Shown here: positions 34,296-35,093 of the stretch, piece after piece | How positions within the stretch are numbered: the stretch's first letter is position 1 | Layout of the letters: every line of letters starts with the position of its first letter | Source: Candidatus Binatota bacterium | Lineage (GTDB): Bacteria; Desulfobacterota; Binatia; Bin18 | DNA: 35,971 bases | Direction: 5' to 3' | NCBI GenBank assembly: GCA_011523265.1 | Contig: WTHD01000126.1 | Location: forward strand, 1-35,971 | Notes under the pieces: model-generated | Database searches by the model: none | The model's input: the letters and a program-made list of their open reading frames with translations, nothing else | Told to the model about the DNA's origin: nothing | Made by a program: the position numbers and the translations under genes

Positions 34296-34466
34296 ACCCA
34301 CCTCCCGAAAAACCCGCTGTTCATCCGTCAATTCAGAGCAAAATACCCCAGGTCTCAAGCCTGAGCAAATCGCAAGGCGATACGGGATAGGCCATCCTCT
34401 GGCGAAATGTTAGGTTGGCCCGAAGCTTTTCACTGCTGACCGTTTGTACCATAAGGAGGTTTGTCC

Positions 34467-35093
34467 ATGAGTCGTCCAGCCGTACCGGAAGCCTGGGTAC
34501 GCATCCCCACGGAGGAAGAATTCCGGGCAAAGAGGCCCCCAGGAGTAAAAGGCGTATACGAATTCGACTCTATCCCGGCCATGGGTCGTTTAATTGCCGC
34601 TCACGCCAGTATCGGCCGGGCGTTCGGGAATCTGTTCATGCAGATTATGTTTGCGCCCGGACATCTGAGCCGGGCGGAGCGGGAAATGGTTGCCGGCGTT
34701 GCCGCGGCGGCCCAGGATTGCCACTATTGAACGCAGTCTCACGCAGAGTTTCTGCGTGTCGAAGACGGCGACCCGGCGCTGGTGGAAGCCATCAAAACCC
34801 GAAGCTGGAACACGCTGACCGGGCTGTCCGAACGGGCGCGGGCCTTGTGTACGCTGGCGGAGAAGCTCAGCGCCACACCCACGCGCATGACCGCCGACGA
34901 CTGGCAGCCGCTCCGCGACCTCGGCTTCGACGACACCGCCTGCCTCGAAGTCGCGCACATCGTCGGCATCTTTAATCATTTAACGCGTCTGGCCGATGGG
35001 CCCGGTCTTCAGTTGGACGCCGGCACGCAAAAAGCTTCTGAGACCGGGGAGGTCTTAGGCACGCCCGAACAGGCGGCCGGGCAGGCGGCTTGA
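34467..35093 (+). CDS. AhpD/carboxymuconolactone decarboxylase-like peroxidase with in-frame TGA (probable selenoprotein)
   Basis: 208 residues if the TGA at 34728-34730 is read as selenocysteine (U88). The start is ATG 34467, seven bases after AAGGAGG at 34453-34459. Before the TGA: residues 1-87, with LSRAEREMVAGVAAAAQDCHY. After it the same frame continues without stop to 35093: TQSHAEFLR, then helices through LEVAHIVGIFNHLTRLADG. Together this is a full-length peroxidase-related AhpD-like protein. The active site C-x-x-C-x-x-x-H is here C85-H-Y-U88-T-Q-S-H92, so only the second, catalytic Cys codon is changed to TGA. A SECIS-like hairpin follows at 34740-34758. Function by family: reduction of hydroperoxides through a thiol/selenol. 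The alternative is a pseudogene with a nonsense mutation or a sequencing error. Confidence 0.85.
34728..34758 (+). promoter_or_regulatory. In-frame UGA with bacterial SECIS-like hairpin
   Basis: After UGA 34728-34730, CACGCAG (34740-34746) pairs with CTGCGTG (34752-34758) in a perfect 7-bp stem. The loop is AGTTT. Known bacterial SECIS elements have a short apical loop with a G in the first two places, followed by U, 16-37 nt after the UGA; here the loop starts 16 nt after it and has G-U at positions 2-3. SelB would bind this loop to deliver Sec-tRNA. Confidence 0.78.

What the first reader, a model, noticed from the sequence alone, without database searches (positions are those of the whole stretch)
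34467..35093. AhpD-like selenoprotein hidden by an in-frame TGA at the catalytic cysteine
The ORF seems to stop at TGA 34728, but the same frame runs on to 35093 and completes an AhpD/CMD peroxidase domain. The TGA falls exactly on the second Cys of CxxCxxxH, giving C-H-Y-U-T-Q-S-H. Other AhpD-like selenoproteins are known with U in the redox pair, usually as UxxC; CxxU in this subfamily would be unusual. Automated annotation would split it into two false genes.
Basis: partly seen in the sequence, partly recalled or inferred. Interest (0 to 1): 0.92.

Follow-up and report, generated by a model that had tools for sequence, protein, structure and literature searches.

The report
Selenocysteine version of AhpD-like peroxidase
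An uncultured Binatia bacterium makes a peroxide-handling AhpD-like enzyme by reading one stop codon as selenocysteine at the catalytic site; this is real, but it belongs to a selenoprotein family described since 2005.

Summary
ORF 34467-35093 has an in-frame TGA at 34728-34730 (residue 88 of 208). The joined frame gives one AhpD/CMD protein, CHYUTQSH, and passes the NCBIfam TIGR01926 cut-off. Read-through as selenocysteine (Sec) is strongly supported. The genome has selA, selB, an Ndh-SelD fusion, and the 3' part of tRNA-Sec cut off at a contig end beside selA; 10 relatives have the whole gene. Twelve orthologues in relatives and 52 homologues from several phyla all have TGA there; Cys homologues and solved structures have Cys. 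A bacterial SECIS-like hairpin (34740-34758) starts 9 nt after the TGA, is nearly frozen at synonymous sites and shows compensatory changes. Codons after the TGA are under strong purifying selection (pN/pS 0.09). The protein probably works as an AhpD-type peroxidase or peroxidase-reductase, with U88 attacking, C85 resolving, and E73/Y87/H92 as proton relay. It is a well-supported new member of a known kind. The same genome holds at least six more CMD/AhpD genes with an in-frame TGA.

The parts
34454..34460 (+). Shine-Dalgarno AAGGAGG, 6 nt before the ATG
   Evidence: sequence; AAGGAGG kept in all six genus members
34467..35093 (+). AhpD-like (TIGR01926 / CMD) selenoprotein gene, 208 residues with Sec at 88
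34683..34685 (+). Glu73 codon, proposed proton-relay acid (15 residues before U88, as Glu118/Cys133 in M. tuberculosis AhpD)
   Evidence: invariant; relay residues from PMC3141380
34719..34721 (+). Cys85 codon, proposed resolving residue of CxxU
   Evidence: invariant in 13 orthologues
34728..34730 (+). in-frame TGA = Sec88, aligned with catalytic Cys of Cys homologues
   Evidence: TGA in all 12 orthologues of relatives and 52/52 scanned homologues; Cys in 2oyo, 6k40 and CxxC proteins of relatives
34740..34758 (+). bacterial SECIS-like hairpin CACGCAG-AGTTT-CTGCGTG, 9 nt after the TGA, inside the codons for HAEFLR
   Evidence: fold z = -2.6 for TGA+45 nt; codon homogeneity 88-98% against mostly 40-60% elsewhere; covariation score reached by 0/500 shuffles
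34740..34742 (+). His92 codon, proposed proton-relay histidine (CxxUxxxH)
   Evidence: invariant; spacing equals His137 in M. tuberculosis AhpD
35091..35093 (+). true terminal TGA stop
   Evidence: the frame beyond it closes within about 8 codons in L022 and L023; TAA or TAG ends several orthologues

Best explanation
Bases 34467-35093 encode one AhpD-like (TIGR01926/CMD fold) selenoprotein of a Candidatus Binatia (Binatota) bacterium. The ribosome decodes UGA 34728 as Sec, using SelB, tRNA-Sec and the hairpin at 34740-34758 (inferred from strong comparative evidence). The protein is an all-helical, probably oligomeric AhpD-type thiol/selenol peroxidase or peroxidase-reductase. U88 attacks the peroxide or disulfide substrate and forms a selenenylsulfide with C85, and cellular thiols or dithiols re-reduce it. 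E73, Y87 and H92 act as the proton relay (inferred from M. tuberculosis AhpD and D. radiodurans DR1765). The substrate and electron donor are not shown.
For: selA, selB and selD are over cut-off in the window's own genome (selD is an Ndh-SelD fusion). The 3' part of tRNA-Sec, with CTTCAAA, lies at the very start of contig C370 beside selA; complete tRNA-Sec (TCA) genes occur in 10 relatives. TGA is present in all 12 orthologues of relatives and all 52 readable named-genome homologues from Binatia, Chloroflexi, SAR324, Acidobacteria, Actinobacteria and others. Cys sits at the same column in 2oyo and 6k40 and in CxxC homologues. The hairpin has almost no synonymous change (pS 0.044 against 0.34) and shows compensatory changes. 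pN/pS after the TGA is 0.086. TGA is a normal terminator here, ending 9 of 22 window genes, so there is no genome-wide recoding. The AlphaFold model (pLDDT 82) matches AhpD-family structures 3c1l, 2pfx, 6k40 and 2oyo. The family is documented with CxxU.
Against: The own MAG lacks a full tRNA-Sec because the contig ends inside it. Sec incorporation and enzyme activity have no experimental proof here. No operon partner reveals the electron donor: gene order is conserved only within the genus. The named-genome scan was seeded partly on HAEFLR, which favours Sec forms. A few homologues (L099, L123, L125) have a weak hairpin.
Confidence: 0.95

Rival explanations
1. Ordinary nonsense mutation or sequencing error: a decaying CxxC AhpD pseudogene.
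For: A single TGA in an otherwise intact frame in a draft MAG.
Against: The same TGA is in 12 orthologues of relatives and 52 homologues from independent assemblies, with pN/pS 0.086 downstream and a conserved hairpin.
Confidence: 0.01
2. TGA is read as another residue (Trp, Gly or Cys) by genome-wide recoding or unspecific read-through.
For: The frame is open under such a code.
Against: TGA ends 9 of 22 clear window genes. SelA, SelB, SelD and tRNA-Sec are present. The TGA sits at the catalytic Cys position and is followed by a SECIS-like hairpin.
Confidence: 0.02
3. The selenoprotein is real, but its main reaction is not direct peroxide reduction. It may be a thiol-disulfide adaptor that reduces a peroxiredoxin, or a reductive dehalogenase like the CMD-fold debrominase Bmp8.
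For: The AhpD fold includes adaptor enzymes (PMC3141380), and the structure search also returns the Bmp8 debrominase (6ohi/6ohj).
Against: Sequence similarity is higher to AhpD-type peroxidase-related proteins (2oyo, 6k40), and Bmp8 ranks lower at 21% identity. DR1765 loss raises H2O2 sensitivity (PMC8945050).
Confidence: 0.25

Closest known systems
AhpD-like selenoprotein family (COG2128 / TIGR01926, CxxU; Sargasso Sea study 2005; 'AhpD-like 1' of GOS 2008)
   Same: Same fold family and NCBIfam model, CxxU motif, SECIS-like hairpin just after the UGA, Cys homologues at the same position.
   Different: Host is Binatia; no held paper mentions both Binatia and selenoproteins. Otherwise nothing departs from the family.
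NCBIfam NF041238 AhpD_rel_CFYUT (hypothetical protein 1 of the Sargasso Sea study)
   Same: Related AhpD domain with C-x-Y-U-T motif.
   Different: 357-position model; our protein scores 63.9 bits against a cut-off of 175, so it is not a member.
D. radiodurans DR1765 (6k40) and D. geothermalis 2oyo
   Same: Same fold; CxxC aligned with C85/U88; 31-33% identity in the structural match.
   Different: They use Cys, not Sec.
M. tuberculosis AhpD
   Same: Relay residues Glu, Cys, Cys and His have the same spacing (E73, C85, U88, H92).
   Different: The residue before the second Cys is His132 there and Tyr87 here (as Tyr50 in PA0269). It uses Cys and overall similarity is low.

Membership tests
TIGR01926 peroxidase-related / AhpD-like | score above the curated cut-off across the TGA | tested here: met
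   117.7 bits against 81.8
TIGR01926 peroxidase-related / AhpD-like | all-helical AhpD fold | tested here: met
   AF2 pLDDT 82; PDB matches 3c1l, 2pfx, 6k40, 2oyo at E about 1e-7
TIGR01926 peroxidase-related / AhpD-like | CxxC/U...H active site with upstream Glu relay | tested here: met
   E73, C85, Y87, residue 88 and H92 invariant in 13 orthologues
TIGR01926 peroxidase-related / AhpD-like | peroxidase or peroxidase-reductase activity | not testable with these tools
   needs purified protein
bacterial selenoprotein | in-frame UGA conserved at a redox Cys position, with Cys homologues | tested here: met
bacterial selenoprotein | SECIS-like hairpin immediately downstream | tested here: met
bacterial selenoprotein | selA, selB, selD in the same genome | tested here: met
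bacterial selenoprotein | tRNA-Sec in the same genome | tested here: inconclusive
   only the 3' part, cut by a contig end; complete in all five other genus members that carry the gene
bacterial selenoprotein | Sec shown in the protein | not testable with these tools
   needs 75Se labelling or mass spectrometry
NF041238 AhpD_rel_CFYUT | score above 175 bits | tested here: not met
   63.9 bits

The most novel reading that the evidence does not exclude
The D-C-x-Y-U-T-Q-S-H-A-E-F-L-R subfamily may use only Sec, with no Cys orthologue, across several bacterial phyla. In Binatia it would be part of an unusually large set of at least seven AhpD/CMD-superfamily selenoproteins per genome, suggesting a selenium-based peroxide (or organohalide) detoxification speciality.
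Probability: 0.3. Interest if true: 0.45.

Novelty: new member of a known kind. Interest (0 to 1): 0.3.

Why it matters
It corrects a gene that automatic annotation would split in two, and it adds well-supported selenoprotein use to Binatia, for which no held paper pairs the class with selenoproteins. Its hairpin shows compensatory evolution inside a coding region: an Ala to Gly or Val change paired with a synonymous Leu codon change. That makes it a good test case for bacterial SECIS detection. It does not change what is known about AhpD-like selenoproteins.

Tried and rejected
Pseudogene or sequencing error: rejected because the TGA is kept in many independent assemblies. Genome-wide TGA recoding: rejected because TGA ends 9 of 22 window genes. 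Rfam on the window gave nothing over gathering score, and the Rfam tRNA-Sec model found only other tRNAs, mostly tRNA-Ser, in the own genome; the truncated tRNA-Sec was found only with a pattern. A second read-through at 35091 was rejected because the frame closes quickly in L022 and L023. The search for a conserved operon partner beyond the genus found only the gene itself and a few scattered families. Papers pairing selenoproteins with Binatia or Tectomicrobia: none held. A search for literature on the Bmp8 debrominase found nothing relevant.

Full report
Observation. ORF calling splits the gene. The joined 208-residue protein matches CMD (PF02627) and TIGR01926 over cut-off, with the matched stretch spanning the TGA. 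The start has a strong Shine-Dalgarno, kept in six genus members.

Is it coding after the TGA? Between six genus members the post-TGA part has pN/pS 0.086 and the pre-TGA part 0.20; all six are 624 nt, with no indels. All 12 further orthologues found in related genomes (63-93% identical) carry an internal TGA at this codon. The named-genome scan returned 53 loci from Binatia, Chloroflexi/Dehalococcoidia, SAR324, Acidobacteria, Actinobacteria and proteobacterial MAGs; its closest hits (90-93%) are titled Candidatus Binatia, which names the host group of the window. In 52 the motif could be read, and all 52 have TGA there; the 53rd (L126) could not be read in one frame. That scan used two seeds, one of which (Q[SH]HAEFLR) overlaps the hairpin, so it favours Sec forms. 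The unseeded searches of 58 relatives and 247 genomes of the phylum also gave no close Cys form.

Sec machinery. selB (389 bits), selA (596 bits) and selD (310 bits) are all over their cut-offs in the source genome. selD is an Ndh-SelD fusion with Cys in place of Sec, a type known from the GOS study. The Rfam tRNA-Sec model found no true hit, but a pattern search found the 3' part of tRNA-Sec at the very start of contig C370, next to selA. It matches the same part of the complete tRNA-Sec of G001; the contig ends inside the gene. ARAGORN calls tRNA-Sec (TCA) in ten relatives.

SECIS. The hairpin CACGCAG-AGTTT-CTGCGTG starts 9 nt after the TGA. In 52 aligned genes the codons for H-A-E-F-L-R are 88-98% the same codon, whereas most other conserved residues share a codon in about 40-60% of sequences. 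In A3 (28 distinct sequences, subfamily and paralogues) 88% of cells pair. Column pair 17-27 changes C-G to G-C in five sequences and to U-A in one. The covariation score exceeds all 500 shuffles and every slid control (the shuffles do not remove relatedness, and the covariation rests on one pair). Several of these changes alter the protein (Ala to Gly or Val) while the partner change is a silent Leu change, which argues that RNA pairing is selected.

Mechanism. U88 aligns with the second Cys of the CxxC in 2oyo and 6k40 (DR1765) and in CxxC homologues. E73, C85, Y87, U88 and H92 are invariant in 13 orthologues, with the spacing of the M. tuberculosis AhpD relay Glu118, Cys130, His132, Cys133, His137 (PMC3141380). 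Tyr replaces His132, as in PA0269. From my own knowledge, Cys133 of M. tuberculosis AhpD is the residue that reacts with peroxide, which would explain why Sec replaces the second and not the first residue. The AlphaFold model (pLDDT 82) has the AhpD helical fold. Loss of DR1765 increases H2O2 sensitivity, and variants of its CxxC complement much less well (PMC8945050). Shown here: decoding signals and conservation. Inferred: Sec insertion, peroxidase chemistry, donor.

Comparison with the literature. AhpD-like selenoproteins with CxxU were reported in 2005 (27 sequences, COG2128; PMC1088965), again in 2008 (299 plus 70 sequences; PMC2398784), and are listed under TIGR01926 in a 2026 review (PMC13188914).

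Surroundings. The gene stands alone, divergent from a molybdopterin oxidoreductase gene and a small cytochrome; this order is kept only within the genus. The source genome has five more CMD genes with an internal TGA (C473, C316, C409, C391, C332) and one gene with the CFYUT motif (C153).

Noticed in passing
L151, L154, L155, L156, L157 (own genome contigs C473, C316, C409, C391, C332): Five further CMD-domain genes with one internal TGA; it reads as C-x-L-U or C-x-F-U, and four of them (C316 was not folded) have a hairpin shortly downstream.
   Followed up: partly
L144 (own genome C153:8359-8817): Gene with CFYUTTWH and an internal TGA, resembling the NF041238 'AhpD_rel_CFYUT' selenoprotein type.
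   Followed up: partly
L016 1390-3657 (own genome C468): Ndh-SelD fusion with a Cys form of SelD.
   Followed up: no
L072 1497-1592 and 2496-2576 (G006): Two tRNA-Sec kb apart in one genome; the second is shorter (81 nt).
   Followed up: no
L061 / G020:C190 6027-6617 and 9383-9709: Two AhpD-type genes with internal TGA 3 kb apart on one contig.
   Followed up: no
L099, L123, L125: Homologues with TGA but a weak or altered hairpin; they may use a different SECIS shape.
   Followed up: no
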